DNA of 64,000 nt, from positions 148,243,143 through 148,307,142 of the forward strand of contig CM038217.1 in assembly GCA_021442155.1 (NCBI GenBank), given 5' to 3'. The stretch comes from Cymbidium sinense. Lineage: Eukaryota; Streptophyta; Magnoliopsida; Asparagales; Orchidaceae. The position numbers and the translations under genes were made by a program. Below the pieces are notes generated by a model. That model was given only the letters and a program-made list of their open reading frames with translations. It was not told where the DNA came from and ran no database searches. Below are positions 25,505 to 63,500 of the stretch, one piece after another. Position 1 is the stretch's first letter. The number at the start of each line of letters is the position of its first letter.

Positions 25505-25732
25505 CTATTTTTTCTTTTCTTTTTCTTTTTCTTTCTCTTTTTCTTTCTCTTTTATCTTTGAACTTTGACCAAGTTTGCGAGAATAGACTTGTTGATTTTG
25601 AGGGAGGTAGTAGGCCACATCCTCATTTATGTTGAACTCATGAACTAAAAATGGATTGAGATCTCCTTCGACATAGTAGGTGATCCCACCTCTCACAAAC
25701 TTCATAAATTGATGTAGAGAGGATGGGTCCAT
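25505..25732 (-). pseudogene. Type B element: linker after protease with Lys/Glu tract
   Basis: The 75-codon frame begins with MDPSSLHQFMKFVRGGITYY, includes EDVAYYLPQN, and ends in a Lys-Glu alternating run encoded by CTTTTT-type repeats at 25,480-25,555. The + strand element has the same order at about 47,120-47,340 (SLHQFIKF, EDATYYLPQN, then a Lys/Arg/Glu tract). It lies just after the protease in both elements, as the segment following the protease domain does in Tat-type polyproteins. Confidence 0.8.
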
Positions 25733-25817
25733 GTTGTTTTCATGTATCCATGGTCTCTCATGTCAAAGCATTGAAAGATGTATCTTATTTTATAATGTGA
25801 AATTTAGCTTCAGTCTT

Positions 25818-26291
25818 CTAATCATCTATCTTTAAAGGAAACACTATAGAGCCTAAGGCCCTCTCGCTTTGTTCATTGATTCCCCTCAATATTATCCTTT
25901 CCTTTTGGAGTTTGGAGATGTCAATCCTCGAGTAGGCAAAGATTCTTATACTCATAATATTAACTGATGCACTTGGATCAACCAATACTCTTGATAGCCT
26001 GTATCTGTCAACATCCACTATAATATAAAGAGGATGGTTATGCCCAATCATCCCTAGAAGTAAGTCTTCATCATTGAAAGTAACTCCTAAGGTATCCTTC
26101 GAGTGGCATACTACCTCTTCAATAGCGGACAGCTGAGCCAAGCATATCTCTGGATCAAGTAAGGCCTTGAATAAAGATTCTCCTATTTCAATAAGATAAG
26201 CATCGTATATTCTTAGCTTAGCTAACTGCTTTCTAAGGTGAGCTTGGATGTTGTAATCAACTCTAGCTTGGTCCTCCACAAGCATATCCAT
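25818..26291 (-). pseudogene. Type B element: aspartic protease domain
   Basis: This is the longest surviving frame in the element (157 codons). Residues 27-52 (RIYDAYLIEIGESLFKALLD) and 53-80 match the region before the protease core in the + strand element. The active-site motif is at residues 103-112, LVDPSASVNI, coded at about 25,985-25,956. Gag-pol proteases have D-[ST/P]-G-A; here Gly is replaced by Ser, which should abolish activity. Residues 132-152 (RIILRGINEQSERALGSIVF) match the second half of the fold. The 157-codon frame with no stop reflects chance survival. Confidence 0.9.
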
Positions 26292-34892: not shown

Positions 34893-36994
34893 CTGTTGAC
34901 CTCATTTTTAGAATGAGCTCTCAACCCATCCATCTTAGACATAGGACTTCTCTTAGACACTAAGGTTTCATTAGTCTTAAGACACTTCTAGTGATTAGGT
35001 GAACACTTAACCTAACCCTAGAAACTTAAAAGAGTTAGCCATAGGAATAGTCAATGCCTTAGGGGTTTTAGAAAAATTTTCCTACCCTATAGCTTGAACC
35101 AAATCCTCACTTCCTTCTTTCAAATCAAACTCCAAATCAAACCAACTTCAATCTCAAATCAATTCCAACTTAATTGATTTTATCAAACCTTAAATAAATT
35201 CCAATGGATTTTCTCAAATCATGAATCAATTCCAAATGATTGAAGCACATGATTGAAATCTAAATCTAAAATCTTTCCTAAGTCACTTTATTCTATCTTA
35301 TGGACTTAGTTCAAATCAAATCCAAATCAATTCAAATTCAATAAATTTTCTCATAACCCATTTTTATTCTCATTTATATTCAAAAATATAAATGAAATAT
35401 AAATTCAAATATCCAAAACCAAAATCAAAACTCAAATACAAATCTAATCAAAATCGAACTTATGCTTCTTCAAGTCAAATTCTTAAACTTAGCCAAATCA
35501 AACTCAAATCATGCCAAACCCTTGATTTTTATTCATGATTCAATGAATCATTCAATCATGAATCCAAATATAAACATAAAATTCAATTATAAAACCAAAA
35601 CTAAATTCAAAACTCAAATCCAAATTCAACCAAAATTCAACCTAAACCTTTCAAGTCAAATTCTTGAACTTAGCCAAATCAAACTCAAATCAACCCAAAC
35701 CCTTGATTTTTCTTATGATTCAATGAATCCTTCAATCATGAAACCAAATATAAACATAAACCTCAATCATCAAACCAAAACCAAATTCAAAAATCAAACC
35801 CAAGATAAACTCATGTTCACCCTTTAAACTTGAAATTGTCAAATGAATCAAAACCCATTTGACTCCAAATCACTTGCAAATGGATTTAATTTTAACTCAT
35901 AAGTCCATATGTGAGTTCAATCAAACTTGATTCAAGTCTTGATCAAGTCAATTGACCCACTTAGGCTCACTTGACCCAAAGTGACCTAAAGTACCCCTTT
36001 TGAGCCAAATTCTAATCGTACCCAAATTGGATTGAACTAATCCCACCTAAGCATCACATTATGACCAACAATCATTATGAGATGATGAATCACTCAAATT
36101 GGGTCAAACCAAGTCAAACCTAATGGTTGCCCAATTCAACACTTAAGGCTAAAATTGACCACCCCACTCAAAATGAGCACATGGGAATTACTCCTCCACC
36201 TCATTTAACACATGGAAACTTCTCCACCACCTCCCTCTGGCCAAACCAAACCACATGGTGTACAAAATGGCCTAACCAACTCAACCCATAGGATCAATTT
36301 GATCAAAATAGCAAAGTCATGCTCGGCCATCCGATCCTTCTAGGGGGAGATGTAATACAAGCATTCCTAAGCTCATCCAAGCTTCCTATAGCTAATTCGA
36401 TTTCTCCATTTTTGGTTTTCCTTAAGGAAAAAATAGGGGAGCTCAAGGCAATTTCATTCTAATTCAATTCTCCACTAAAGCTCAATTCCTCTTTTGAGCA
36501 CCTTGAGGGAACCTAGTAGAGCTCACCCAAGCCTTCATCTCTCAAGCTGTGAGAAGGTAGAGTTTGATCAAGGTCGCAAGCAATTGAAGCCCATTTTGTT
36601 CCATAGGAAGATCCACTTAACCTCATGCCCTAAAATCTTCAACAAAGCTTCATCTCCATTAGATGAAGCTAACTAGCTGGGAGGGCCAGTGATAACCTCT
36701 AGTGGGGTATGGATCAAAACTGAGCTTAGGTGCAGGAGTTCTTGTCTTTTGTAAAAGAAACTTTCACCCTATTGCATTTTGATCATTGGATGTCTTGCTT
36801 CTTATATGATGATGGTGTGGGTTCAATTTAAGCTCAATCAAGCATGGATCAAGCCCTAAAGGGTGGATTGTTCCCTCCAACAGGAGAGCTCAGGGATGGA
36901 TCATTGACCATCCATCTGTGCATTTTGGATGGACGGTCCTGATTAATGCTCATATGGTCCTTCAATTTATCCCTTAAGAACCGCAGGCTTAATT

Positions 36995-37025: not shown

Positions 37026-39069
37026 GAGAAAGCACGTAGCATCGCTAACGGCATTGGATGTGACACTTAAATAACCAATCCCATCATGCCACGTGGAAAG
37101 CGTGTGCCACATCACGTGGCACCGACAGGATTAGTTATGTAATTAGAGTTTTAATTAATCCTTAATGACAAAAACTTCAAATTTACATAACTAAATGTAG
37201 AAAAATAAAAAAATATAAAATAAAATGCATTTTGAAGATAATTTAGAGGGAAATTCATAAAAAATGTTGACAATTAGTTTTAAACAATAAATTGTCCTTA
37301 ATTAGAATTTTATTTAAAACTTAATAATCATAATTACTCCCTAATTACTTCATTAATTGATTCCAAGTTTCTTAGATGTATTTAGTGGGATGACCTTTAC
37401 CTCCCCTAATTTTCTTGGAATTTATTGATGAGTAAATTAAGAAAATCAATTAATGAATCCTTAATCACTCTCTTAATGTAATTAAGCTTAATTAAGCATG
37501 TGAATAGTGGTTTAATCTCTTGATTAAGTTAATTATACTTTGTTTAAGTGAAGAAGAGGTTTATGAAATGGTTTTTGGGTATTTTTCCCAAGTCATTCCA
37601 CAAACCCCTTTCTTTCCTTAATTTAAATTTAATTAAGGCCTAATCCACTAATGACCCACTTAATTAACTTGATAAAATTTACAAAACATTCCAAAACTCA
37701 ATCATTTCCTTTTTGGGTACATGCTTAGGTGTTCAATAACCAAAGTAGCTTAAGGAAATCATATCTAACCCATATGTATGGGAAGGGTTATGAAAGTACT
37801 TAAATTAAACCATTTTTCTTAATTAATCATTAATTATGAGCCAAATGCATTAGGTCCTTTTTTTCTTAGGTGCATTGCTAATTTAAATTCCTTGTGATTT
37901 TATATCATATATTGGCTCATAATTATTTGGTTAAATATGTTAAAGTGGTGTAGGTAAGGGGCAATTAATGAACTTAATGAACACCTTAACCTAAATAAAA
38001 CATAAAATCCACTTTAAGTGTTCTAAAAATTAAACTAAAATAACATACACATGTAGGAGAATGGATAAGAGAATGGATAAGATTTTATGTCAAACATTAT
38101 AAATGAAAGATTTGTTATTTATAAGTAATTATAAACTTGCATGTGAATAATATGAAATGTGTTATGTGATTTCTTCTCTTCTTAACATAGTTTGTATAGA
38201 TTTGCTTGTATAGTCCATTTGAAAAGGACATAACACTTTCTTAATCCTATACACTCCTATGTCATGACCTAAGAAGAACTCCACATCACACATGTAAACT
38301 AAACAATCAAACCAAAATGAAACAAACATAAACTTTTTGCATGATTTTCTTTCCATGCTTTTCTTTTTGTACATGCACATATATTTAAGAAAAGTGGTAT
38401 ATTATTCTGGACACCTTGGGGTTATGAGCTTAAGTAGCCCCAGGTCTTATAACTTACACCCCATGTGTAAATAATGGCGTCAGATAACTTATGTCTTTCA
38501 TACTTGTAAATGTACATATGAAAATGGATAAGAGAATCTCTTTCTACTTAACCAAATCATGCATCATGAAGAATCCAAATTTTCTTAACATCCTTTAGCA
38601 TTCATCATTAAGCAAATATATTTGCATGTATATATTTTCTGGGTCCATCCATATGCAAGCTACAGTTGGGAAAGAAATAAAGTGTTGTGTTTTGTGATAG
38701 TAATTCACTTTACTTAATCTTAAACCATTTCTTTTTGAATAGGTTTGTTTGTGAAAACTTAGTTAATAAAACACATAAAAACATTTACCAAACAAAAATA
38801 TTCAAAATAATTGGACTTGAAATTTATACAACACTTATATTTATGTTCATTTAGCTAATTACTTATTAAGTTAAATGATTTCTTTTTCCTTATCATGTAA
38901 TATTTAATATAAAGAAAATATAATAACATTATTGTTTTATAGATGAAGATGAACAACAATCTTAGTCTAACTATTATTTTCTAGAAGAAAGAAGAAAATA
39001 GAAAAAGATGAGATAAGATAATCCAAATCAATACTCTCATTGTGATTTAATTCATTTATAATCCAGATT

Positions 39070-39090
39070 GTATATGGGTAGAGCTCGACC
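39070..39090 (+). promoter_or_regulatory. Type A 5' LTR TATA-like site and start region
   Basis: TATATG is followed by GGTAGAGCTCGACC, aligned with TATATAAGGGTAGAGCAC at 59,796 in the other LTR. The TATA box is weakened (AAG to G). GGGTAGAGC is kept in types A and B and would be at or near the RNA start. Confidence 0.5.
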
Positions 39091-40505
39091 ACCCAATTTT
39101 TTTTTGGGTTTTTGTGGTGGAGCCCGACCATAAATAGCCTCTTATTCTTTAGCGCTAGCCTTATAAATTGATTGATGTTTGTTTAGCTTATGCATTAAGA
39201 TGACATTTTTTTTCTAGTTTCTTCCTTACTTTGATGTATGGCCTGAAGATGACTAGGCTCTTAGAAAAATAAATTTTCTATTTAACTAATCAATTCAAAC
39301 TAAAAAAAATTAAATAACTCATAACATCACCTAAAGCCTAGGTTATAAAAAAGATAAAAGAATTAGCAACCCCTTTAGCTGGATGTTGTATAATATTTCA
39401 CATCATGCATAAAAAGCATATTATTTCACTCTTGATTTGGAGGGCTTCCACCTTTGCCAGAGAACTTGCAGACCTTTGAGAGCCATGGTGGAAACACTCC
39501 TCTTTTCTTACTAATTTTGGCCCATAATCTAATTTCTCATGCATTAGGCATATGAATCCTAAAGCCTCTGTCAAATTGATTGTCCAAAATAAAAATAAAA
39601 TATAATAAAAATTTGCATTTGATTTAAGTCATTAATCATGCCCTACATGATCTAGTCTCTTAGGGAGTGTGTTTAAGGTCTTAGTCTATTTTTAAATAAA
39701 CAATAGCTTAGCTATCTTGCAAAATCATATGACTTTCCTACATGTATTTAAAATTATATGTAGAGTTAGTTGGCTACCAGGTTGTAAGTCCAATCAGTGG
39801 TTTATCCTCTCTTATGGAGGTAAACTAGATACCCATTTTCACCTTAGATTTAGGTCATGCTTTGGCCCTCGCCAAAGCTCCCTAGAGGTTAGGTTTCTTC
39901 CCCTTATGGCTACAAAGCATAAATCCTCACTCTTAGGCATTTTCATGACATTGTATCATGGAATTGTAAGCCCTATATTTCTAACAAAAATTCAGCTCAA
40001 ACAAATAAATCACTTCAACTTCAAAAATATAAAGCCCAATTATATGATAGTTTTGAATGCTTGATAGGATTCCTAGTATCCTAAGCATCCCCTACTAATC
40101 TTCATTTAGCTTTGATAAGAACTCCCTCCTCTTGATCGATCTCACTTGATCTTTCTAAAAATAAACCAATTGATTGATAGTCCTACCTTCAAAATCTTTG
40201 GAGACAATGATCATTTACCATAATCAAGAGTAATCTTAAGAAATCTCATTCCTTAGGATGTAATTAACTATGGGGGCTTGCCCTTGTAGGAAACTTAATG
40301 AACCCGATTTAAAATAAATCTTGCTTTACTTTTTCATGTAAAGTAGGTAAAGAATCTCTAGTACATACGAAGACCCATAGTTTTTAGGAGTCCTTATTCA
40401 GGTGATTAGGTCCATTGTAGGGTGGTGACTTCTATCTCTTGAGATAGTACACCATTCCTCAATGTCATACCCGATCACCCTAATAAGAATATCTGCGGAT
40501 CGACA

Positions 40506-40517
40506 TGGTGTCCTAAC
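40506..40517 (+). other. Primer-binding site of the type A element
   Basis: TGGTGTCCTAAC follows CA at 40,504-40,505 directly, one base different from the site at 19,426. This fixes the LTR end and the start of the leader. Confidence 0.75.
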
Positions 40518-41011
40518 AAGGTGTAGTATATATATTTTTGTTTTTATTCATCCTTTCCAAAGGGATAGATGAAGGAAAGAATGTATTATTTCACCACAGA
40601 TTTTTCTAGCGAGTCCACTTGGGAAGGTTCCTATCTCCATCTTTGGTAAATGATCATTGTCTCCAAATATCGATAGTGGGTTTGTATTTTATACAAATTT
40701 GAGACTATCTTTCTTTTCTGTTGGCACTTAGTTTATTTCATCCTTAAACTAAGCTAGCCAACATCTTTAGGTTTTAGGACCCCACTCCTAGTGTGTCTTA
40801 AAACCCCCATTAGGTTCTCCAATGGGTAAAAATTTAATAAAAGAAATAATTAAAGACTTCCTCCCTACCATTTTTATGGTAAGTTAAGGTTCATTCCAAA
40901 AATAAAGAAAAATAAATCCTTCATAAAAAATTAGCAATTTTCCAAAAGCACTTTTTCAAAATGCATATAATAAAATGTTTGCACAAGAATTGTCATAAAA
41001 CACCCTCATCT
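40518..41011 (+). other. Proximal leader with two hairpins
   Basis: This is non-coding sequence between the primer-binding site and the hairpin array. TTTGTAT and ATACAAA around three bases form a hairpin at about 40,681-40,697. At 40,719-40,763 TGTTGGC/GCCAACA and CTTAGTTTA/TAAACTAAG form a two-part stem. In the second copy (about 61,384-61,428) the outer stem is kept and the inner one is degraded. Confidence 0.6.
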
Positions 41012-41850
41012 AACAATCTTCATGATTGTTATATGTTGGATCATTCCAAAAATAAAATTCCAACAATCATATTTTTTGAAAGCATAAATGAACATCTTCA
41101 CTCAATTTATTTTGATGAAGATTTCATTTTCAAAAATAAAATTCCAAAAATCATATTTTTCAAAAGAAAAAATGAACATTTTCACTCAATTTATATTGAT
41201 GAAGATTTCATTTTCAAAAATAAAAATCCAACAATCAAATTTTCCAAAAGCACAAATGAACTACTTCACTTAATTCATTTTGAAGAAAACTTCATTTTCA
41301 AAAGTAAATTCAAAAAAAAAAATCATACTTTCCAAAAGCACAAATGAACATATTCATTCAATTTATTTAATGAAGATTTCATTTTCAAAACAAAATGAAC
41401 AATCACATTTTCAAAATAAAATGAACAATCAAATTTTCAAAACAAAATCAACAACATCCTCTTAAAAATAAAATCCAACAATCATAAAATTTCAAAAAGC
41501 ACAAATGAACATCTTCATTCAATTCATTGAATGAAGATTTCATTTTCAAAACAAAATGAACAATCACATTTTCAAAACAAAAATCAACAATCATCTTTCC
41601 AAAAATAAAATCCAACAATAATAATTTTAAAAAAAACACACAAATGAACATCTTCATTCAATTCATTGAATGAAGATTTCATTTTCATAACAAAATGAAT
41701 AGTCACATTTTCAAAACAAAATGAACAATCACATTTTCAAAACAAAAATAAACAATCATCTTTTCAAAAATAAAGTCCAACAATAATAATTTCAAAAAAT
41801 AATAATAAATGAACATCTTCATTCAATTTATTGAATGAAGATTTCATTTT
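41012..41850 (+). repeat. Leader hairpin array, first class
   Basis: Seven imperfect to perfect palindromes lie at about 41,085, 41,170, 41,254, 41,342, 41,503, 41,642 and 41,807, each about 44 bp. Typical arms are ATCTTCATTCAA and TTGAATGAAGAT around a 4-base loop, extended by AAATGA / TCATTT. A small AACAATC/GATTGTT hairpin precedes them at 41,012. They are separated by A-rich spacers with AACAATCACATTTTCAAAA units. Short ORFs on both strands here (for example 40,961-41,347) only reflect the lack of stops in the repeats. Confidence 0.9.
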
Positions 41851-41976
41851 CAAAAGAAAATAAACAATCACATTTTTCAAATAAAATCAACCATCACATT
41901 TTCAAAAATAAAATCAACATCATCTTTTTTAAAAATAAAAATCAAAATCAAAATAAAAAGAATCAAGAATACATTT

Positions 41977-42775
41977 GGATTTCCTTAGCATACCTAAATT
42001 TGCTAAGGATCCTCTTTTTCAAAATCAAATTAAAAAAATAAACAACATAGGATTTCCTTAGCATACCTAAATTTTCTAAGGATCCACTCTTTCAAAATCA
42101 AATCAAAAACAAAAGAAACACATTTGGATTTCCTTAGCAAACCTAAATTTGCTAAGGATCCTTTTTCAAAAATCAACAAAAATAAAAGAAACACATTTGG
42201 ATTTCCTTAGCATACCTAAATTTGTTAAGGATCCTCTTTCAAAATCAAATCAAAACAAAAGAAATAACATTTGGATTTCCTTAGCATACCTAAATTTTCT
42301 AAGAATCCTCTTTTTTAAAAACAAAAAACAAAACAAAACACATTAGGATTTCTTTAGCATATCTAAATTTGCTAAGAATCCTATTTTCAAAAAATTTCAA
42401 AGACAAAACATATTTGGATTCTTCATTTAGCATACCCAAATTTGCTAAATGAGGATTCCATCTTTCAAAATCACCCATGATTCACAAAACAAAGCAAACA
42501 AAAGAAAGAAGAAATTATTTTCAAACACCTCACCTAGCATACTTAAATTTGCTAAGTGAGTAAAATTCTAAAAAATCTCAATTAAAAAAAAAATCAAAAT
42601 CAAATATGAACCTATGGAAGCATCTCTCTCAAAAAATATTTGAACCCATTTTAAACATACCCAAATTTGTTAAAAAATGGATTCTAAATTAAAAAATTCC
42701 CTTTCCAATCAATCTCAAAATCTCTTCTAAATTCATTTGAGCCCCACTTAACACTTTCAAATTGTTGAGTGTGGG
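41977..42775 (+). repeat. Leader hairpin array, second class (constant loop, varying stem)
   Basis: Ten stem-loops lie at 41,977, 42,050, 42,126, 42,199, 42,273, 42,345, 42,421, 42,530, 42,645 and 42,742. The first six recur every 72-76 bp. The loop is near TACC(C/T)AAATT, closed by CA and TG. Most of the first six share the stem CCTTAGCA/TGCTAAGG with outer GGAT/ATCC, some with arm mutations. The seventh has TCATTTAGCA/TGCTAAATGA and the eighth CTCACCTAGCA/TGCTAAGTGAG with one mismatch. The ninth pairs CCATTTT..ACA with TGT..AAAATGG and the tenth CCCACTTAACA with TGTTGAGTG. They end about 130 bp before the first ORF. Confidence 0.92.
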
Positions 42776-42905
42776 TTCAAATTCTAAATTCAAATTTAAA
42801 AAAATCAACAAAGAAAAAAATTTGATTCAAGTTTGTTTTCAACATTGCACACTTTCAGTTAGCTTCAATCAGTTTCAATTTCAATTTCACTTCAGTTCAT
42901 TTGCA

Positions 42906-43589
42906 ATGGTAGGAGTATGTGTTCATTTCCTTGGGGATGAATTTTTGATCGGCCACCTCCCATGCCATTATGCCCACCTCATCCACTTTGGCAGACTTTG
43001 AGGGGCAGATTATATGTGAGGGAACCTCCACGCAGTGAGCATAGTGACCAAGAAGCTAGTCATCCAGGTTGACATACCATGTGATTCATATATTCCCTCG
43101 CTGAAGAGGAAGGCTATGGCGGTTCCCACAGTAGCAGTAGTAGTGCTAGCGTTAGTGCACCCAGTTGTTCCCCATGTTTCCCCAGCTAGGGCTAGCACCC
43201 ACTCACTAGTTCCCACCAAGGGGAAGGCTCCCCTGATTTTAGGGATTGTCTCCCCTGCCTTCGAGGTTGGGTTTAGTTCCTACACTGCTCGACCTACCAG
43301 GATCCAGCACAAAAATAAGAACTACATGATTAAGCGGTATCACACTCGCATTGCCAGGGAGTTGGAGGCAACAACCCAGTCTGTTATAGAGGAGTAGCCT
43401 AGGATGGTTTCCCCACTGGTTATAGAAAACCAGGTCCACCCTCTCTCTGGATATGATAGAGAGATGTTAAGAAGATTTCAACTTCACCTCCCCCGAGCAG
43501 TTCAATTTCAGGCACCTATTAATTGGAGGAGGAGGTCATACGCCGACCTTCGATCCATTTTACGTCAAGTAAGTGGAGCCTACGGATGA
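42906..43589 (+). pseudogene. Type A element: extra ORF before gag, N-terminal part
   Basis: The ATG at 42,906 opens MVGVCVHFLGDEF and continues to YAHLIHFGRL before a stop. The second copy at 63,601 has MAHHVFSPWDGLPDRA and YAHLIHLDEV, so this start is shared. The reading goes on in other frames at 43,035-43,397 (120 codons, basic, with KNKNYMIKRYHTRIARELEA) and 43,404-43,589 (61 codons, Arg-rich, with YDREMLRRFQLHLPRA). I recognise no domain. Position before gag agrees with the extra ORF of Ogre elements, whose role is unknown. It is broken by at least two frameshifts. Confidence 0.6.
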
Positions 43590-44660
43590 TTGGAGTCCAG
43601 GGCTCAATTTGATTTGAGATCAGTTATCCCCCACATCATGGGTAGATAGATTAGATAGGAGAGGGCCAGAGAGGCCCACACATTAATTCATATCAATAGG
43701 AGAGGAGGTAGTGCCAATCGCAGTCTCGCACTTATGGAATTTCTTTGACGGCATTACCCACATCAATCATACTAATAATTCTCTTGGACTACTACACATC
43801 ATAAGCGAGGAGCTTGTATCCCGAGAGAGTCGGTGGTGCCTCCACCACAGCTTCCCTTCCGCCTCCTATACATGTTCTAGCATCTACTATTCCAGCCAAG
43901 GCCATGAAGGCTGCAGGGGAGAAGAGAACCCTGCTAGTGATTCAGCTATGTCCAAGAGATCCTGTTACATCTACATCGCCTACAGTGGCGAGGCCTAGAT
44001 CTCCCAGTCGACCTTCTTCCCTAGTTGTGGTGAGGAAGGAATGGCGACCTCGGAGTATCATAGTTGTCCTGTCACTACCACCACCGCAGTAGGCTATGGA
44101 GATTATAGAGCTAGGGAGGAGATAGCAATAGCTCCCATGGCCATAGATCCTCCTGTACCACTCAGAGCAAAATAGTCAAGAGTATCATCCTCTAGTGAGT
44201 GTCCTCACAAGAGCTCTCAGTAGCAAGGTTAGGTGACTATCTGCTCATGATAGTGATCCCACCAATCGACATCTTCATGCTTCATTGGATCATCCCTAGA
44301 TGACATATAGCTAAGATTCTAGTGGAGAAGAAATCTTGGATATGTCGGTCCAATTTAGAGATGATGAAAAGGACAATTTTGATCCAATGAAGATGACGAG
44401 ATTCAGGAGGTACATGGTAGATACCAAGGGTTCCCTCCTCCATGATCAGCAAGATATGGAAGGTCTTGTGGTTGAGTAGGAAGACACAGCCTATTCGACC
44501 CAACACCTCTATCAGCAATTAAAGTTAAAGGATGAACAAATAGATAGGATGGGGAAGTAGCTTGAGGAATTGGTAGCAGCTATTTTAGCACTTTAGAACT
44601 AAGCACTGGTAGTTCATCTTACTATAGCTAAGGCTAATCAGCTAGAGTTGGTGCATGTCT
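43590..44660 (+). pseudogene. Type A element: ORF-to-gag region
   Basis: This is Pro/Ser/Arg-rich coding remnant in mixed frames (43,711-43,998 and 43,814-44,092 are partial). It matches the - strand element at about 28,200-29,190. No domain was recognised. A predicted coiled or charged stretch near 44,400-44,600 (LKLKDEQIDRMGK-like) lies just before the gag core. Confidence 0.5.
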
Positions 44661-45345
44661 TGGATCCTGCTAAGACTTTACCTCCAGTAGAGCAGAGCAG
44701 CACCAGTTTTTATAGGAAGGTAGTGGATAATACCTTCATACAAGAAGAGGGCATCAAAACCATGGTTATGTAGTAGGTGAGAGAAGTGTTGGCTCAAGCT
44801 CAAGGAGGATCATTAGTTCCAAAGGGTAGACCCTACCCAGGGGAATTTGATGCCATCCAATATCCTAAGGGTTTCTTCCTTCAAAAGTTTTGATGGCAGG
44901 AACCCAAGGCATACACATTTTAATTATTGCAACACCAAGGTGGCAATGATGCTCTCCCATCTAACTTTTGTCGGCTTAGTAGGTATAGCCTGGTATGCTT
45001 GAACTTCCCAATAGTTAGTGAAGACTTTGTGAGTTGGAGCAACTTTTTTAAGAGGTTTGTTGGAGCTCAACAAAGGGTGACAGTAATCTCGTAGGCTCAA
45101 TAAAAACCAGTGAGTCCTCATTGATTATATTCTCGACATAATTTGAGTATGAAATACAACCACATGTCTAACAACATGCCATTGAGATTTTCGAATATCC
45201 ATGGCTCCTTCATGCTCAAAGGTTTCACCATAAAAATATTTGAGAATCTAATCAACAAGACGACTAGCTTACAAGGAGAAGCCAAACATTGGCCTTTTCC
45301 AGACCAATCAACAAAGCAGAAGCCATAAGAAGCTTATGAGAAAGT
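44660..45345 (+). pseudogene. Type A element: gag core (capsid-like domain)
   Basis: In successive frames the sequence gives PKGRPYPGEFDAIQYPKGF, GNDALPSNF, SWSNFFKRFVGAQQRVTV and then HNLSMKYNHMSNNMPLRF. These match the Retrotrans_gag capsid domain. The protein would form the virus-like particle that packages element RNA. At least four frame breaks and several stops are seen. The same blocks are found on the - strand at 27,640-28,160. Confidence 0.82.
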
Positions 45346-45639
45346 CGCGTGATAGTAGTAGATAAGGGAAACAGCTAGAAGAGTAATTGAGAGACCTCAG
45401 CTCCACCGTCACTTTCCACCTCCTCTACCACCACGAGGTAGTCCCACCGCTTCCCTGTAGCCTCCATGGCTGCACTCTCCTCCTCACCATATCAGCGAGA
45501 TACATACATACCCCGCCAGTGTATGATCCACCTACTCTTTTGGATAAACTTAGCAAGCTTTATTCATTTAAGAGGGAGGTAATTAAGAAGATCTTTAAGA
45601 ATCTCTTAAAATCCTGATTTTTAGCTACCTGAACCTAGA

Positions 45640-46032
45640 AGGCTGGAGGAAGCAAGAAAAAGCAATGATCCTAACTTTTGCCCCTACAACCACATGCTAG
45701 GTCATGTTTGGGAAGATTGCTTTACATTCAAGGACTTGAGACATAGCTTCAAGACCTGCTATAGTTATCCTAAAGGAATACCTTGTGGAACAACCATCCA
45801 GTTCCATTAGGGTAATCCTTGGGGATACTTGATCCTTCCAAAACTAAAGAAGGGGATATCTCCTTATCCAAAACCTCTAAGAAAATTGTTTCCAAAAGAA
45901 ACTTTCTGTGTGCTAGGAGCTCAAACCTCCAACATCAATGAAGGTTTGCAAGTTGTTCAAGACAACTCAAGGAAAGAGGGAGCTCGAGAGAGATGTGCCA
46001 CTGAGAGTATAAACCACCGAGTCCGCCTCTAG
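45640..46032 (+). pseudogene. Type A element: gag zinc knuckle and C-terminus
   Basis: DPNFCPYNHMLGHVWEDCF at about 45,670-45,725 holds a zinc-knuckle-like motif (C, H, H, C in the order C-x3-H-x3-H-x4-C) of the type found after gag in Tat elements. It is followed by FKDLRHSFKTC. The 45,829-46,032 frame (67 codons) continues with PKLKKGISPYPKPLRKLFP. The knuckle residues are kept here but lost in the - strand element. Confidence 0.72.
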
Positions 46033-46600
46033 TCCACAATTGCAGCTACTACTACTTCAGCGAGCACCTCTATTTCAGCTAGCTCTTCCTTTAGTAGACA
46101 TCTTGTATCAATGGATGAGGGCATCAAATCCCTCACCCCACTTACTTTACTTGACTTATACTATGTACCTCCTTCAAAACCTAAGAAATCAACGAATAAA
46201 GCTAGCTTGAATTATATCTGTGTCACTTCTGATGGGTTGACTAAATCTACTCCTAATGAAAACTCTTCAAGTCTAAACAACAGTTATAAATAACAAATCT
46301 TCCTCTTAATTGAGTTATACTTTCTTTCTCTGAATACTATGGGTACACCTCCTAAGATAGACATGGAATCATCCAATTTCGAGGGTCCCATAGGAGAAGC
46401 TGTAGGTGAGCATGATGAGCAGGTAGAATCTTCCACAAACTTGCCATAATAGATCACTAAAGTCAACCTCCTAGAGTAGCACCTCAAGATAGAGGAAAAT
46501 AAGTCATTGGTTTGAGGATCGAGAAGCCTCTCCATAGGATGCTCCACCCTTGGATATGCTTGTGGAGGATTAGCCCAAGGTGGACTACAATGTCCTCTCT
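46033..46600 (+). pseudogene. Type A element: gag-protease linker
   Basis: Serine-rich and acidic coding remnants are present (46,111-46,293, with YVPPSKPKKSTNKASL). They correspond to 26,292-26,880 on the - strand. No domain was recognised. The - strand frame at 46,284-46,679 is a shadow. Confidence 0.45.
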
Positions 46601-47110
46601 CACTGAGAAATTTGCCATCTAAGCTAAGCATATACGATGCCCTTATCTTATCCAAAGAAATAAGAAAATCATTAATCAAGGCTCTCCTTGATCCAGAGAT
46701 ATGCTTAGCTCAGCTGACCGTTATTAGAGAGGAGGCACATTATTCTAGAGAAGCTTAGGGAATCACTTTCATAGATGAAGACCTTCTTTTGGGGACATGG
46801 TGCATAACCGTCCCCTATACATTATAGTGGACATGGGTAGATACAGACTTGCTAGAGTTCTTATCGATCCAGGTGCATCGATGAACATTATGAGTCTAAA
46901 GACCCTTGCTTGTTTGAGGATCAACATCTCCACACTCTGAGGAGATCGGATGATGTTGAGAGGATTCAATGAACAAGGCGAGAGGGCATTAGGTTCCATA
47001 GTGTTACCTTTAGAGATAAGTGGTTGGAAGACTGAAGCTAAGTTCTATATCATTGATTCAAATACTTCATTCACTACTTTGCTCGATAGGCCTTAGATAT
47101 AATAGAACAA
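46600..47110 (+). pseudogene. Type A element: aspartic protease
   Basis: The reading goes KSLIKALLDPEICLAQLTVI, DEDLLLG, GRYRLARVLIDPGASMNIM, MLRGFNEQGERALGSIVLPL and FYIIDSNTSFTTLLDRP. The active-site motif DPGAS lies at 46,866-46,880 and is intact. LLDRP matches the LGRPW block at the end of retropepsin domains. The enzyme would cut the gag-pol polyprotein. One stop and one frame change (near 46,757 and 46,810) break it. Confidence 0.9.
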
Positions 47111-48248
47111 GATGATTCCATCCTCGCTCCATCAGTTCATCAAGTTTAGGAAGGATGGGATTGAGTACTATGTCAAAGGAGATGAAAAGTCATTTTCAAT
47201 CAGAGAGGTTGAGATATATGAGGATGCAACCTACTATCTTCCTCAAAACACCTTTTAGCATGAACTTGGTCAAAATTCAAATTCAAATACAAAAGAAAAA
47301 AAAGAAAAGAAAAAGGAAAAGAAAGAGAAAAGAAAAATAAAAATCCAAGTGAATAAGAAAAGGAAATTGAGAAAGAAGTAGAGCTGCATATCACATTCCA
47401 CCCACAGTTCATTCCATCATATGGACATGTGGGTAGGATGACTCAACCTTTGCCAGGTAGAGGCAAAGGCAGACATAGAGATAGTCCCAAAAGCGGAAGA
47501 CTCCCTGTTTGGCCATCAGCCAATAGGGGTTATGTTCTAGTTCACAGGAGTACACCTACTATTCACATAGACTTGGAATCTAGCTCGAAGGATGAGTCTA
47601 ATGTAATTATCATACCAGCCAACCTCTCTCAATGAGTTTCATTGGAAGTGACACTTAAGCCAGATAGTGATGAAGACCAGGCCTCCACAAAGCATAAATG
47701 TATTCGAATCAAATGTATGTGAAACTATTAAGCAACAGGAACCTTAGCTCTAACCTCACTTTCATCTCAAAAGTTGAAGGTTTAGTAGTTAAGGAAGCCC
47801 AAGTCTTCCATGGATGTCAAGAGATTCTTTGGGATCATCATCCTCAAGTCCAATTGATGTAGACTTGAGGATATTTCAAACAAAGAATTAATGGAATTGC
47901 CTTTTGATTGGTATTCTACTTGTGTTCTTAACAAAGAAGGGTTTGATTCCTATACATGGTCTAAGCACGTCAAGTACTTCAAAAAAAAGCTATGGAACAA
48001 GATAGGGATGCACAATCAAGATCAGGACTAGGATTCAGTATAGTGGTTCCAGTCGATGATGATGATTACTGCTTAGCTATCTAATCATTTCGAGTTTGAT
48101 AGGTTCTTTTCACACAACACCAAATCTTATGAGAATGTGTGTTTAGAAATTTAGATGATCCAGATGATCTCTAAATCAAAAATGCACTGCCAGAATTTGA
48201 AGAGGAGATCCATTCAATAATTGAAAACTTAAAGAAATCAACCTCAGG
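47110..48248 (+). pseudogene. Type A element: protease-RT connector with Lys-rich tract
   Basis: PSSLHQFIKFRKDGIEYYVK and EDATYYLPQN are followed by a Lys/Arg/Glu run coded by AAAGAAAAG repeats at 47,290-47,340. A Gly/Arg-rich frame follows (47,429-47,635, with GRGKGRHRDSPKSGRLP). The remainder to 48,248 is broken. The layout equals that of the - strand element. In Ogre an intron lies near here, but I could not support splice sites. Confidence 0.65.
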
Positions 48249-48965
48249 ATGAAAGAAAATCCACGCCCAACATACATCAATTTGTTGCTGAATGAAGAAG
48301 AAACCAATGACTTAGTTAGGCTATTGACTAAGTTTAAGGACTACTTTGCATGGAGTTATGAAGAGATGCTTGCATTATCTCTTGACATAATTATCTATAA
48401 ACTAGCAATAGATCCTAGAACTAACCCTATCAAGCAAACTCCTAAACGCATGCGATTAGAAATCGAACAATAGGTCATTTCTGAAGTCAAGAAACTAATC
48501 GATGCTAGTTTCATTAGGTAAGAAAAATTCTCTACCTGGTTTGCCAGTGTCATCCTAATTAAGAAGAAGAATGACTAAATTTGCATATGCGTCAATTTTA
48601 GAGACTTAAATAAGGCATGTCCTAAGGATGGGTTCCTCTTCTATACCAATTAATGGTGGACATCCTCTCGTAGTATTCTCCTTCATGGATGGGTCATCTA
48701 ACTAACCAAATCAAGATGGTCCCGAGGATGAAAGAAACACTTTTTTCAACCTCGATCGAATCTATTATTATAGGTCATGCCTTTCCTTAAAATGCCGGTG
48801 CTACATACCAACGGGCCATGACTCAGATCTTTAATGAACTCATCCATCATCAAGTTGAGTGCTATGTTGATGATCTAGTAGTTGAAAGCAGAGAAAAGAA
48901 GACCATCATCTCTTGACTTGAGAGTAGTTTTGAATGGTTAAGATAATTTAACCTCAAAATGAATC
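48249..48965 (+). pseudogene. Type A element: reverse transcriptase
   Basis: The 75-codon frame at 48,249-48,473 covers the RT N-terminus (LVRLLTKFKDYFAWSYEEM, then KLAIDPRTNPIKQTPKRMR). Then follow VKKLIDASFIR, ICVNFRDLNKACPKDGF, and KMPVLHTNGP-type sequence that in a neighbouring frame reads AGATYQRAMTQIFNELI. The catalytic YVDD is at 48,863-48,874. FRDLN.ACPKD and AGATYQRAM are typical of the Tat lineage. The region between FRDLN and YVDD is shortened and shifted several times, so no enzyme is made. Confidence 0.9.
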
Positions 48966-49558
48966 TCAAGTGTGCATTCGAGTAGCTTCAGGAAATTCCT
49001 TGGGTTTATGTCCGACACTGGGAATAGAAATAGATCTAAAAGATCAAAGCTATCTTAGAAATGCCACCCTTAAAAGTTTAACTCAACTCGATCTTTCCAA
49101 GGATGGTTATATCTAAGATGCTTTATCTCCAACCTATCGAGATGCAAGCCATTTTCAACACTTGCCAAGTTCGTGGGATGACAAGTGTCAACAAGCTAAA
49201 GATATCAAGTAGTATGCAGACAAAGATAAGTTGATGATAAGTGCTAAGAATAAGATATTAGGTGAGTGCCTTTGAAGATATCAAGCACTATTTGGTGAAG
49301 CCAGGTTCAATCCTATCTGCCACTCATCCTCTACATGCATTGGATGACTCCCTCAGGACTTTGTTGGCCCAAGCTAATGACGAAGGGAAGGAGAGTGCTC
49401 TCTATTATCTCAGTCGTAATATGATTCCTGCTGAAGCAAACTACCAACCTATTTAGAAATATTACCTAGCTTTGATCTTTGCATCCCAAAAGCTACAACA
49501 CTATATGCTTTTTCATAAGGTGAACTTAATTTTCAAAACCAATCCAATGTAATATCTC
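48966..49558 (+). pseudogene. Type A element: RT connection and first RNase H
   Basis: After a short connection region the 49,262-49,456 frame reads SAFEDIKHYLVKPGSIL, LLAQANDEGKESALYYLSRN and MIPAEANYQPI. These are the Ty3/gypsy RNase H blocks (E.A.YY.SR and E..Y.P.EK). After a stop, YYLALIFASQKLQHYML continues the domain. RNase H removes the RNA strand during reverse transcription. Confidence 0.85.
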
Positions 49559-49918
49559 ATGACACAGCCAATGATATCTAGACGTTTGGCATGTTGGTCC
49601 ATGATACTCTCATATTTTCATAATACATTCGTACCCCTCCGTGTAGTAAATGGACAAGCACTAGCAGATTTCTTAGCAGCACACCCACTTCCTACTAATT
49701 CCTCGCTTAGTGATGATCTCTCTGATGAACAAATCATGAACTTAGGGGAGGTTAAAAACCATCGATGGGAGATGTATTTTGATGGTGTGGCTTCCTTTCA
49801 TAAAGGAGAACCACCACGATCTACTCTTCTGGAAAAGGAAATGGTAGGAATAGTTCTATTAACTCCAGATCGTGATGTGATGAGATTCTCATACTATCTC
49901 TCCAACCGCACCAACTAA
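49559..49918 (+). pseudogene. Type A element: archaeal-type second RNase H
   Basis: This is the longest surviving frame of this element (119 codons). Residues 9-47 (RLACWSMILSYFHNTFVPL and VVNGQALADFLAAHP) form the tether after the first RNase H. Residues 70-77, WEMYFDGV, match the start of the second RNase H with its first catalytic Asp (residue 75, codon about 49,781). The later part (GIVLLTPDRDVMRFSYYLSN) fits the second and third strands. A second RNase H of this kind marks the Tat lineage (including Ogre and Retand). A small insertion follows the FDG block, and a stop ends the domain early. Confidence 0.88.
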
Positions 49919-50440
49919 GTGAAAGTATGAGGGTTTATTTTAGAAGCATCAATGATCTATTGGCCTGAATTTGGCCGTCATTACCACAAAGTTCATGAAG
50001 TAGAACAAGTGGTTCCTGGGAGAGAACATAAGATGCTCCAAAAGAATTGGCATGTCGGAAGATGAGTCCATTCCAATGGGTCCAAAATAGACAAGTCTTA
50101 TCCCTTATTGATCAACTCATCGAGAGACTTTCTCTTGAAGGGAGGTTTTGCCAAAATAAAGGAGTTGATTGGAGGCAACATTCATAGATTATTTGAACAC
50201 CGAAAACTACTCAAGAAGCAAGCCCATCGTGAAACAAAGAGCTCTCTCTATGCTCTCATGGATGGCACCTAGACGATGTCCTTCGATCAAATGTGGTTAT
50301 GTATTTGGAAAACATAAAGCCCATGATTGTGATTGAGGTACATTATCTGTGTTTATGTGAAGGCATGATCCAAGATGAAGATAAGATCAAGAGACTAGAT
50401 ATTATTGGCCTTTGATGATTATAGACTCATGGATGTAGCT
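49919..50440 (+). pseudogene. Type A element: RNase H end to integrase N-terminus
   Basis: These are broken remnants. The last RNase H part and the integrase zinc-binding region should lie here; CTRCGLPLTTQHSTPY at about 50,457-50,504 looks like its end (CxxC). No intact frame is present. Confidence 0.5.
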
Positions 50441-51374
50441 AGAGATGCCATAGTGTGTACACGGTGTGGTCTTCCATTAACCACCCAACATTCTACACCC
50501 TACATTAGCCTCATGGCCATTTGAGTGTTATGGGTACCAACATTGTGGGTCCTATCGATCCTTCTTCTTCCAAGGGTCATCGGTTCATTCTAATTGCCAC
50601 CAACTACTTTTCCAAGTGGGCGGAAGTAATCCTACTCAAAGAGGTCACAGGTCAGCATGTGCATCAATTTTTTAGGAACCATATCATATATAGGTTTGGG
50701 GTGCCTTGATGAATTATATCCGATAATCGTACTGCATTCAAAAGTACCAAGATCAATAGCCAAGACATGGTATAAATTAGAGATACTCCACCATCTACTA
50801 CCCTAGAGCCAATGGCTTAGTAGAAGTATTCAACAAAACTCTCATCCAAATACTAAAGAAGACACTTGATCAATAAAATAGGAATGAGAGCAAGCTGGTT
50901 GAAGCCTGGGCATACCGCACACATAGAACTCCAACTCAATCTATCCCATTTTCCTTAGTGTATGAGTCCGAAGCCATTTTATCTTTAGAAGTTCAACTCC
51001 CATCACTAAGGATAGCATTGGGTAGCAAAATCACTACAGAATAGAATGCAAAGTTACAATTAGAAGAGCTCAAAGGTTTGGAGGAGAGACGCCTATGGGC
51101 GTTCCAAAACCTCAAGTTATACAAATCCAAGATGATTCAAGCTCACAATAAGCTAGTCCACTCTAGGTCTTTCCAAGTAGGATAACTTGTGTTAGTCCTA
51201 AGGAGACCAATTGTTGCCCATCGAAAGATGGGAGGCAAGTTTGAACCCACTTGGGAAGGCCCCTATGTCATAGAGAAGGCCTTCCAAGGAGGATCTTATC
51301 AGCTCATTGATTGTAAAGGGGAACACCTGATGATTCCAATTAATGGGCTATATTTGAAGAAATATTACCCATAA
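50441..51374 (+). pseudogene. Type A element: integrase
   Basis: The 50,521-50,709 frame reads GTNIVGPIDPSSSKGHRFIL and YFSKWAEVILLKEV. The first catalytic Asp is replaced by Asn (codon 50,539). The second Asp is in SDN at 50,722, and the Glu in NGLVEVFNK at 50,823, about 34 codons later, as expected for DDE integrases. The C-terminal frame 51,189-51,374 contains GKFEPTWEGPYVIEKAFQGG and ends PINGLYLKKYYP, the usual end of Tat-type pol. Several frameshifts and the lost Asp make it inactive. Confidence 0.9.
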
Positions 51375-51750
51375 ACATGTTTGAAAATAATTATCAACAA
51401 AGAATAAAAATTGATTCCATTTCATCAAAATCTTCTCTTCTTCAAGTGTTATTTTGTTGTGAATCCACATGTTTAGGATAGGTGTAAGAGAACCCAAGAG
51501 GCATCATATCCCTCTTTCACAACACAAACACAATCAAACACAATCTCTCAATGCCATTAGAATAGGTGTAAGAGAACCCAAGAGGCATCCTATTTCAATT
51601 AGCACAACTAAGTTAGGTGTAAGAGAACCCAAATGGCATTATTTCTTGGTGGGAATTTTGGTTGCCATCCGTGACACCATTTCATCAAATTCCCCAAGTG
51701 TGTTTAGTGTATGTGTGAGAGAACCCAAGAAGCATCCTATTCCTTAGCTA
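51375..51750 (+). repeat. 3' region: four GTGTAAGAGAACCCAAGAGG repeats
   Basis: Units begin at about 51,480, 51,565, 51,617 and 51,713, each followed by CATC and TA(T/A)-rich sequence. Spacing varies from 52 to 97 bp. The 92-codon frame through them (V/IREPKRHPI repeated) is a by-product. Confidence 0.8.
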
Positions 51751-61670: not shown

Positions 61671-63500
61671 AACAATCTTCATGATTATATGTAGGATCAT
61701 CTTTACAAAATAAAATTCCAACAATTTTCTAAAAGCAAAATGAGTTTCTTCACTCAATTCATTTTGGTGAAGACTCATTTTCAAAAAATAAAATTCCAAC
61801 AATCATATTTTCAAAAGCATAAAATTTGAAGATGGGTTTCCATTCAATACATCCAAATGTGTTGAATGGATATTACATCTTCAAAAAATCATAATTTTGA
61901 AATTCCATTCAACACATTCCACTGTTATTGGGATTTTCACATTTTCAAAATAAAAAATAAAATAAACACATATGAAACCTCTCCATTCAATATACCCACA
62001 TTGTTGAAGTTTCATTTTCAAATAAAATAAAAATAAATAAATTTTCCAAAAGCACATATGAATATCTCCATTCAATATACCCAAATTTATTGAATGAAAT
62101 TTCATTTCCAAATAATAACATTATTTTGAAATCCACTTAACATATTTCATATATGAATTGGGATTTCTCTTTCAAAAAAGCAATAATCACAAACAAAATA
62201 TACATTTGAAAATAAAACATAATTGATTTCCATTCACATACCCAAATTTGTTAAATGAAATCTCTTTCAAAAAAAAAAAAAAATCAAAAAACAAAATTTT
62301 CAAACATATTTGAACTTCATTTAGCATATCCCATTTGCTAAATGAATTTTCAAAAAAACAAAAATTTTAAACACATTTGAATTCTTTAACATACTCAAAT
62401 TTACTAAGTAAATCTCATTCCTCAAAAAAAATTTCAAAACATATTTGGAACTTCATTTAGCATACCCCATTTGTTAAATGAAGTCTCCCTTTTCAAAATC
62501 AAACAAAATTTGAAACACCTTTTTTGAATTCATTTAGCATACTCAAATTTGCTAAGTGAAATTTCCATTTCACAAAATTTTCAAAAACACTTTTGGAACT
62601 TCATTTTAGCATACCATATTTGCTAAAGTGAAGTTTCAAATTAAAATGAAAACAAAAATTTTGAACACATCTTTGGAATCAAGCATACAAATTAAACATT
62701 TCACAAAATTTGAACTTCATCTTAGCATACCATATTTGCTAAAGTGAAGTCTCCATTCATCAAATCAAAATCAAATCAAAATCAAAGAAACACATTAGAT
62801 TTTAGCATACAAATTTGCTAAGGATCCTATTTTCAAATCAAAATCAAAATCAAAAGAAACACATTTGATTTCAGCATACTTAAATTTGCTAAGGATCTAC
62901 TTTCAAAACAAATCAAATAAAAAAGAAACACATTAGATTCCCTTAGCATACTTAAATTTGCTAAGGATCCTATTTTCAAAATCAAATTAAAATCAAAGAA
63001 ACACATTAGATTTTCTTAGCATACTAAATTTGCTAAGAATCCTATTTTCAAAAATTTCAAAAAAATAAAACACACTTGGATTTTCTCATTTAGCATGCCC
63101 AAATTTGCTAAATGAGAATTTCATTTTTCAAATCACAAAATGATTCACAAAGCAAAATAAGAAAAAAAAACAAAAAGAAGAAATTGTTTTCAAACATCTC
63201 ACTTAGCATACCCAAATTTGCTAAGTAAATTCCAAAAATCTCAAATCCAAAACAAAAGCAAATTGACCCTTTACTTTAACATACCTAAATTTGTTAAATA
63301 AAGGGTCCTCAAAATCAAAATAAAATGCAGATATGAACCTATGGAAGCATCTCTTTAAAAATATTTGAACCCATTTTCAACATATCCAAATTTGTTGAAA
63401 ATGGATTCTATATCAAAATTCCTCTTCCAATCAAACTCAAAATCTATTCTAAATCATTTGAACTGACTTAACATTTCAAGATGTTGAGTATGGGTTCAAA
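61671..63500 (+). repeat. Leader hairpin array, second copy
   Basis: About twenty stem-loops lie at roughly 61,738, 61,825, 61,898, 61,972, 62,057, 62,125, 62,225, 62,316, 62,382, 62,451, 62,529, 62,598, 62,714, 62,796, 62,867, 62,937, 63,013, 63,083, 63,201, 63,265, 63,371 and 63,459. Perfect or near-perfect stems include CATTCAATA/TATTGAATG, TTCATTTAGCA/TGCTAAATGAA, TTCTTAGCA/TGCTAAGAA, TTCTCATTTAGCA/TGCTAAATGAGAA and CCATTTTCAACA/TGTTGAAAATGG. At 63,265 GACCCTTTA-C-TTTAACA pairs with TGTTAAATAAAGGGTC apart from one bulged C. Most loops are TACCCAAATT or close to it. Confidence 0.93.

What the first reader, a model, noticed from the sequence alone, without database searches (positions are those of the whole stretch)
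41977..42775. Array of stem-loops with constant loop and covarying stems in a retrotransposon leader
Seen: ten consecutive hairpins with a near-constant loop, TACC(C/T)AAATT closed by CA/TG. Stems change from hairpin to hairpin on both arms: CCTTAGCA/TGCTAAGG, then TCATTTAGCA/TGCTAAATGA, then CTCAC-TAGCA/TGCTA-GTGAG, then CCATTTT..ACA/TGT..AAAATGG, then CCCACTTAACA/TGTTGAGTG. Paired change of this kind is the classical sign of selection on RNA (or DNA cruciform) structure. The array sits between the primer-binding site and the first ORF, where packaging, dimerisation or translation signals act. I know of no such array described in Tat/Ogre elements. The function (packaging signal, ribosome shunt or internal entry, decoy for silencing) is inference.
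Basis: partly seen in the sequence, partly recalled or inferred. Interest (0 to 1): 0.92.

Follow-up and report, generated by a model that had tools for sequence, protein, structure and literature searches.

The report
Constant-loop hairpin array in retrotransposon leader
The RNA start region of a very abundant plant jumping gene carries a row of small hairpins whose loops stay nearly the same while both sides of their stems change together, which points to selection on RNA shape and perhaps to a multi-site signal by which the element packages its own RNA.

Summary
Window 41977-42681 carries nine stem-loops that match one covariance model; the tenth (42740-42776) has another loop and only E 0.61. 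They lie in the 5' leader of a Ty3/gypsy element of the Tat clade, between a tRNA-Arg-like primer-binding site and the first coding region. A second copy (62064-63406) carries 13-16. In this 3.53-Gb genome the 16-base core occurs 41,138 times. Forty sampled copies gave 329 distinct units. Stems covary: 87 randomly drawn units are 81.5% paired, against 33-48% when one arm is slid, with 0 of 500 shuffles as high. Genome-wide, pair 3 is G-C 54,466, A-T 24,441, G.T 7,675, A.C 4,008. At pair 7 sense-strand T.G (26,656) outnumbers C.A (948) 28 to 1, which favours RNA over DNA. But the strand bias is carried mainly by pair 7, and outer pairs lean the other way. Best reading: sense-RNA hairpins under structural selection that show one loop many times to a protein, most likely Gag for genomic-RNA packaging. 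Structure well supported; function inference. No Rfam family reaches its cutoff; my paper searches listed no such array.

The parts
40590..40598 (+). approximate 3' end of the 5' LTR (..TTCACCACA)
   Evidence: read by comparison with L039; boundary inferred, no target-site duplication tested
40607..40624 (+). degenerate primer-binding site, tRNA-Arg type
   Evidence: copy L039 has TGGAGACTCCGCTGGGGA at the same place. The tRNA-Arg sequence is recalled, not from a call
40625..42905 (+). about 2.3-kb A/C-rich, G-poor structured leader
   Evidence: sense folding z -4.8 to -7.6 in windows 40600-42599; composition
41511..41842 (+). three upstream 13-bp hairpins ATCTTCATTCAAT/ATTGAATGAAGAT with a minimal loop
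   Evidence: inverted repeats I14-I16
41977..42014 (+). hairpin 1, TCCTTAGCA(TACCTAAATT)TGCTAAGGA
   Evidence: model R1, 44.1 bits
42050..42087 (+). hairpin 2
   Evidence: R1, 42.4 bits
42126..42163 (+). hairpin 3
   Evidence: R1, 34.4 bits
42199..42236 (+). hairpin 4 (G.T at pair 3)
   Evidence: R1, 41.2 bits
42273..42310 (+). hairpin 5 (decayed)
   Evidence: R1, 40.7 bits; -1.5 kcal/mol
42346..42383 (+). hairpin 6
   Evidence: R1, 39.1 bits
42419..42456 (+). hairpin 7, CTTCATTTAGCA(TACCCAAATT)TGCTAAATGAGG
   Evidence: R1, 52.4 bits
42526..42563 (+). hairpin 8, CTCACCTAGCA(TACTTAAATT)TGCTAAGTGAG
   Evidence: R1, 43.1 bits
42644..42681 (+). hairpin 9, CCATTTTAAACA..TGTTAAAAAATGG (decayed; some orthologues pair fully)
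   Evidence: R1, 34.7 bits; alignment A1
42740..42776 (+). last leader hairpin, different loop CTTTCAAAT; not a clear member
   Evidence: R1, E 0.61; both arms found by a loose pattern in 24 of 27 rows of A1
42906..43394 (+). ATG and degenerate first coding region downstream of the leader
   Evidence: similar DNA in 16 of 40 copies, own copy included; ORF identity not shown
46779..51371 (+). degenerate protease-RT-RH-aRH-integrase region
   Evidence: 46877-51743 aligns in three pieces at 80-84% with L065, whose pieces match RVT_1, RT_RNaseH, RVT_3 and Integrase_H2C2 in that order; protease by eye only
62064..63406 (+). second array in a second copy, same orientation: 13 units at E up to 0.01, 16 at E up to 0.38
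   Evidence: R1 hits

Best explanation
Shown: the leader of this Tat-clade retrotransposon is a string of short hairpins (usual loop UAC-Y-Y-AAAUU, about 8-12-bp A/U-rich stems), 200 of 332 neighbouring units being 60-113 nt apart, joined by G-poor A/C-rich linkers. Loops stay nearly constant while both arms of the stem change together. Inferred from this: selection acts on the folded sense RNA, which shows the same loop many times on one molecule, and the stem serves only as a holder. Further inferred: the loop is a recognition site for an RNA-binding protein, most likely the element's own Gag, so that the array works as a multi-site, high-avidity packaging (and perhaps dimerisation) signal that picks full-length element RNA into virus-like particles. 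Extra hairpins arise by tandem duplication and are kept or lost without harm because the signal is redundant.
For: Motif-free hairpin detection recovers the same loops (574 hairpins in the fetched spans of 40 copies; commonest loops TACCCAAATT 71, TACTCAAATT 53, TACCTAAATT 44). Covariation on 87 units drawn at random from 329: 81.5% of cells paired against 73.6% shuffled and 33-48% slid; 114 cells changed on both sides against 46 shuffled; 0 of 500 shuffles as high for either. On a tree of 329 units, Watson-Crick-to-Watson-Crick double changes number 22.4 against 1.0-6.2 for slid pairs. Arm swap: own arms -9.53 kcal/mol, arms from other copies -5.86; own better in 267 of 329. Genome-wide pair 3: 87.1% of 90,590 are Watson-Crick, odds ratio about 43. 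Pair 7: sense wobble T.G 26,656 against C.A 948, C-G 19,275. A leader-end piece of at least 145 nt matches 37 of 40 copies in the orientation of the hairpins (three more 27-94 nt). The place between PBS and first ORF is where retroelement packaging signals usually act (general knowledge). [quoted passage not shown]
Against: No binding or expression data exist here; Gag binding is pure inference. Without units carrying T.G at pair 7, sense and antisense stems are equally stable (217 units, p=0.6), and at pairs 9-12 A.C mismatches exceed G.T ones (168 against 102). One-sided restorations of a pair are not commoner than in slid pairs (132.6 against about 160-219). The R-scape-like test passes 0.05 at one pair only. 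RNAalifold on A1 gave 6 unrelated pairs. In leader B three of nine hairpins tested are hardly formed in the predicted ensemble. Known multi-site packaging signals are dispersed over the genome; here they sit in the leader. The minus-strand fold is also better than shuffled (z -2.1 to -5.0). Only one genome was available, and copies were picked by an exact core match.
Confidence: 0.47

Rival explanations
1. Translation control: the hairpin string lets ribosomes shunt over, or enter inside, a 2.3-kb leader to reach the first coding region.
For: The ninth hairpin ends 225 nt and the tenth 130 nt before the first coding ATG; upstream ATGs are not removed (30 seen against 27 expected in leader A, 28 against 33 in leader B), so plain scanning would fail.
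Against: Known shunts use one large hairpin behind a short ORF (recalled); a near-constant loop repeated 9 to 22 times is not explained; many stems are weak enough for scanning ribosomes to melt (inference).
Confidence: 0.14
2. Other RNA role: loop-loop contacts (AAAUUU at the loop edge is self-complementary) for dimerisation or condensation, or binding of a host protein for nuclear export or splicing control.
For: AAATT is in the commonest loops, though loops such as TACCACATT and TACCATATT vary there; Ogre transcripts are partly spliced (PMC6317226, passages read).
Against: Only A-U pairs, so a weak kiss. For a long-range partner the window was checked for exact complements only: one 10-base complement of the TACTCAAATT loop lies in the coding part at 45140, and TTTGGGTA at 37574 and 37712; not followed up.
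Confidence: 0.14
3. Mutational by-product: tandem duplication spread one palindrome, and template switching during reverse transcription or replication keeps correcting the arms to match. No selection.
For: Six of nine units in the window are tandem copies with nearly one stem type; tandem arrays are common in Tat elements, though placed in 3'UTRs (PMC7004042, passages read).
Against: Arm correction would not hold the loop constant (loops recovered without a motif), nor keep 26,656 T.G pairs at pair 7; changes are mostly single matched positions, not whole arms; linkers carry less information than the arms (the loop was fixed by the search pattern there).
Confidence: 0.13
4. DNA-level function: an array of protein-binding sites or cruciforms, like the insulator made of 12 Su(Hw) sites in Drosophila gypsy.
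For: A reiterated binding-site array in a Ty3/gypsy element has a precedent (12 sites, PMC5825117, passages read; its place in the gypsy leader is recalled). The core GCATACC resembles the Su(Hw) site as I recall it; no call tested that (the passages gave no site sequence).
Against: A protein reading double-stranded DNA needs no matched arms; T.G at pair 7 is a mismatch in a DNA cruciform; Su(Hw) is an insect protein (recalled).
Confidence: 0.12

Closest known systems
Multiple-dispersed packaging signals of ssRNA viruses and HBV pregenomic RNA (MS2, STNV, HBV)
   Same: Several stem-loops sharing a loop recognition motif while the surrounding sequence varies (PMC6281560, passages read; PMC7612645, start of abstract in listing)
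   Different: There dispersed over the genome; here clustered as a dedicated tandem array in an untranslated leader. Protein binding untested here
Retroviral psi/DIS stem-loops (HIV-1, MMTV, FIV)
   Same: Structured RNA in the leader, Gag target (starts of abstracts in listings)
   Different: A few distinct stem-loops (recalled), not 9 to 22 units with nearly one loop
Tandem repeats of Tat/Ogre elements (source of satellites)
   Same: Tandem arrays in non-coding parts of the same clade (PMC7004042 and PMC6317226, passages read)
   Different: Described as hypervariable and in the 3'UTR; 'hairpin' and 'palindrom' occur 0 times in the main text of PMC7004042
Drosophila gypsy insulator
   Same: Reiterated short sites in a Ty3/gypsy element (PMC5825117, passages read)
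   Different: DNA sites for a zinc-finger protein; not hairpins with covarying stems (recalled)

Membership tests
Tat clade (Ogre or Retand) LTR retrotransposon | Second RNase H (aRH) between RH and INT | tested here: met
   Copy L065: RVT_1 7.9e-17, RT_RNaseH 9.7e-16, RVT_3 1.6e-6, Integrase_H2C2 4.1e-7 in this order; position criterion from PMC6317226. Of 10 pieces of the window's own decayed copy only two matched, both below their curated cutoffs (RT_RNaseH 1.1e-4, DUF7244 6.7e-5); it aligns with L065 at 80-84%
Tat clade, Ogre subclade | PBS for tRNA-Arg | tested here: inconclusive
   TGGAGACTCCGCTGGGGA in L039; tRNA-Arg sequence and its link to Ogre recalled. PBS-side DNA in 12 of 40 copies, the window's two included; many fetched spans are too short to reach it
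Tat clade, Ogre subclade | Extra ORF before gag; intron between PROT and RT | not tested
   Coding parts are degenerate; no RNA data
Multi-site packaging signals | Several stem-loops with one loop motif | tested here: met
   (22 hits at E up to 0.01 in element sense in the 2.2 kb of L042)
Multi-site packaging signals | Dispersed over the genomic RNA | tested here: not met
   All 33 R1 hits (E up to 1) in the 64-kb window lie in the two leaders; none at E up to 0.01 in coding loci L064 and L065
Multi-site packaging signals | Bound by the coat or Gag protein | not testable with these tools
   Needs binding assays
Tat 3'UTR tandem repeats | Lies downstream of gag-pol | tested here: not met
   Lies between PBS and first coding region
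Rfam families | Match above gathering score | tested here: not met
   Window 40500-43500: only mir-2574, 22.2 bits against 90, E 0.24

The most novel reading that the evidence does not exclude
A new kind of cis-acting RNA: a self-expanding tandem array of constant-loop hairpins that gives one retrotransposon RNA many near-identical protein-binding loops, so that packaging strength is tuned by copy number and stems are free to drift as long as they pair.
Probability: 0.4. Interest if true: 0.85.

Novelty: new variant of a known kind. Interest (0 to 1): 0.74.

Why it matters
How plant LTR retrotransposons choose their own RNA for packaging is, as far as I know, largely unknown (none of the 12 papers listed out of 525 is about a plant element's packaging signal). 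Tat/Ogre elements can make up a large part of a plant genome (Ogre: 45% in Lathyrus sativus, PMC7004042, passage). This array gives a concrete, testable candidate: a 10-nt loop on a short stem, present in tens of thousands of natural variants that already form a mutational scan. It also shows how a repeat can gain a structured RNA function while its sequence changes.

Tried and rejected
Rfam: no family above cutoff. Viral contigs: 0 matches; genome contigs: 2 matches in a collection of 257 Gb of prokaryote DNA, taken as chance although both scored E 2.5e-4 and 4.8e-4 with R1. Loop complement as a long-range partner: a few exact matches, not followed. Purged upstream ATGs: not seen. Pfam on the window's own pol pieces: too decayed, so L065 was used. 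A first fold script timed out after three rows. RNAalifold on A1 failed to show the hairpins, in my view because subfamilies differ by indels inside the stems; I did not re-align to rescue it. Substitution rates in linkers were discarded because ungapped linker columns are misaligned. The search for the Su(Hw) site letters found 0 papers. The pair-7 T-A count was not obtained, so only an upper bound of 7,587 (T-A plus all other letters) follows.

Rows dropped: L016 was left out by mistake. I took it for the place of L018, but it lies about 43 kb away and has 2 units of its own; so 40 of 41 copies were used. Also dropped: duplicate units; 11 of 40 copies with a leader-end match shorter than the limit, then L028 and L012 as near-duplicates, leaving 27 in A1; 3 of 90 drawn units as duplicates in A2. 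Apart from the two in the window, the copies come from the first 29 Mb of contig C1 and were found by an exact match to the core, which favours well-kept copies. In one search only the strand set by the hairpins was searched.

Full report
WHAT IS THERE. The region holds nine hairpins at 41977-42681 that match one covariance model with E between 2.1e-10 and 9.9e-6, and a tenth at 42740-42776 that does not clearly belong (E 0.61, other loop). The first six are 73-76-bp tandem copies with the stem TCCTTAGCA/TGCTAAGGA or, in the sixth, a one-base variant; the other three carry CTTCATTTAGCA, CTCACCTAGCA and CCATTTTAAACA arms. Six of nine loops are exactly TACC(C/T)AAATT and seven of nine keep the CA/TG closure. 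This copy is old: two of the nine stems are nearly lost. A second array lies at 62064-63406 in the same orientation, with 13 units at E up to 0.01 and 16 at E up to 0.38. Copy L042 shows 22 in 2.2 kb.

WHERE IT SITS. A leader-end piece of at least 145 nt matches 37 of 40 sampled copies (own copy included) in the orientation set by the hairpins; the other three match over 27-94 nt; the opposite strand was not searched. In copy L039 the leader begins with TGGAGACTCCGCTGGGGA behind CACCACAGATTTTTC, which fits a primer-binding site for tRNA-Arg (the tRNA sequence is recalled); the window has a decayed form at 40607-40624. PBS-side DNA was found in 12 of 40 copies, many fetched spans being too short to reach it, and DNA like the first coding region in 16 of 40. 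Downstream of copy L028, pieces of locus L065 match reverse transcriptase (7.9e-17), RNase H (9.7e-16), a second RNase H of type RVT_3 (1.6e-6) and the integrase zinc domain (4.1e-7), in that order. RT-RH-aRH-INT is the order of Ogre and Retand elements of the Tat clade, found in angiosperms (PMC6317226, passages read). The window's 46877-51743 aligns in three pieces with L065 at 80-84%. So the array is in the 5' leader of a Tat element, not in the 3'UTR where Tat tandem repeats are described (PMC7004042, passages read).

HOW COMMON. TAGCATACCTAAATTTGCTA occurs 15,929 times and GCATACCNAAATTTGC 41,138 times in the 3.53-Gb assembly; the reversed patterns occur 0 times. A related 22-base degenerate pattern occurs twice in the 257-Gb prokaryote collection and not at all in viral contigs. 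The number of arrays is therefore of the order of ten thousand (inference).

IS THE STRUCTURE REAL. A finder with no knowledge of the motif gave 574 hairpins in the fetched spans of 40 copies; the commonest loops were TACCCAAATT 71, TACTCAAATT 53, TACCTAAATT 44 and TACCAAATT 25; six loci had 12-20 hairpins each, against 0-6 in five shuffles of each. Sense-strand folding is far better than dinucleotide shuffles in both leaders (z -4.0 to -8.6 in 400-nt windows of 40600-42599 and 61200-63599). It is not so at 42600-42999 (z -1.1), which holds hairpins 9 and 10, nor after the leaders (+1.0 to -1.5 at 43000-44199; -0.4 at 63600). In the LTR it is -1.3 to -1.8 at 39000-40199 and -3.8 at 40200-40599. 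The antisense strand of the leaders is also better than shuffled, but mostly less so (z -2.1 to -5.0). Outside hairpins there is 7.0% G and 18.9% C, inside 12.6% G and 16.3% C. In the partition function of the whole leader A, the inner seven pairs of the nine hairpins have mean probabilities of 0.49-0.99; of nine hairpins tested in leader B two have 0.0 and one 0.19.

DO THE STEMS COVARY. For 87 units drawn at random from 329 (A2), 81.5% of cells pair against 73.6% when 3' letters are dealt anew and 33-48% when the partner is slid by 1-3 columns; 114 cells changed on both sides against 46; 0 of 500 shuffles reach either; 10 of 12 pairs show change on both sides (5 of 500 shuffles reach that). 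On a tree of 329 units there are 22.4 direct Watson-Crick-to-Watson-Crick changes, against 1.0-6.2 for slid pairs (17.8 against 0-4.4 with 174 units). One-sided restorations are not in excess (132.6 against about 160-219). Stems with their own arms fold at -9.53 kcal/mol, with right arms from other copies at -5.86; own better in 267 of 329. Among 44 of 329 units with a perfect 9-bp stem there are 11 different stems. Genome-wide, with the loop and neighbours fixed, pair 3 reads G-C 54,466, A-T 24,441, G.T 7,675, A.C 4,008: 87.1% Watson-Crick where independence gives about 55%, odds ratio about 43. These counts include relatives by descent and are not independent events.

RESULTS AGAINST. My R-scape-like test with a tree-based null passed 0.05 at pair 3 only (E 0.04; pair 5 E 0.36), and neighbouring linker columns scored nearly as high, because units were stacked without gaps. 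RNAalifold on 27 orthologous leader ends gave six unrelated pairs and -0.77 kcal/mol. Both may be alignment limits, but they stand.

RNA OR DNA, AND WHICH STRAND. A C-G pair decays equally often to T.G and C.A if strands are alike; only T.G is a pair in sense RNA. At pair 7 (with G-C at pair 3) the genome holds T.G 26,656, C-G 19,275 and C.A 948: 28 to 1. At pair 3 it is 1.9 to 1. In the 329 units T.G at pair 7 occurs with both G-C (78) and A-T (23) at pair 3 and in 35 of 40 copies. At pairs 3-6 and 8 together G.T exceeds A.C by 68 to 39. Against this: without T.G-at-7 units the sense and antisense stems are equally stable (217 units, p=0.6), and at pairs 9-12 A.C exceeds G.T by 168 to 102; recent breaks on tree tips show hardly any strand bias (58 G.T, 51 A.C). 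So the strand evidence is strong at one pair, inherited through many copies, and weak elsewhere.

HOW IT PROBABLY WORKS. Loop nearly constant, stems free but paired, many copies on one molecule, G-poor linkers: this is what a multivalent display of one binding loop would look like. I give this about 0.47. The steps up to 'hairpins under structural selection' rest on data; 'sense RNA' is likely; 'protein' and 'Gag' are inference. Rivals: translation control, another RNA role, a mutational by-product, a DNA-level array.

NOVELTY. No Rfam family reaches its cutoff. In the titles and starts of abstracts listed by paper searches (each a capped list) nothing describes such an array; one search found no paper. 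Most subscription papers are missing from that library, and I opened passages of four papers only (PMC6317226, PMC7004042, PMC6281560, PMC5825117), so absence from print is not shown. I rate it a new variant of a known kind (structured retroelement leaders).

Noticed in passing
window 41041-41940: A second AT-rich tandem array (periods 139-165) just upstream, with three perfect 13-bp hairpins ATCTTCATTCAAT/ATTGAATGAAGAT; the second copy has a related hairpin TCCATTCAATACAT(ccaa)ATGTGTTGAATGGA at about 61839-61870.
   Followed up: partly
window 35413-35857 and 54550-55010: A 180-bp tandem repeat in the LTR-like segment of the first copy, with similar DNA in the second, itself holding short palindromes (..ATTCATGATTCAATGAATCAT..).
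   Followed up: no
window 23273-27346 and 45561-49562: Inverted pol pieces of a third, oppositely oriented relative at about 74-80% identity.
   Followed up: no
window 42740-42776 and 63466-63489: The last leader hairpin before the coding region has its own loop; both arms are found by a loose pattern in 24 of 27 orthologues.
   Followed up: partly
window 45140-45149: An exact 10-base complement of the TACTCAAATT loop in the coding part; may be chance.
   Followed up: no
hairpin core GCATACC: Resembles, from memory, the Su(Hw) site of the Drosophila gypsy insulator; probably coincidence.
   Followed up: no
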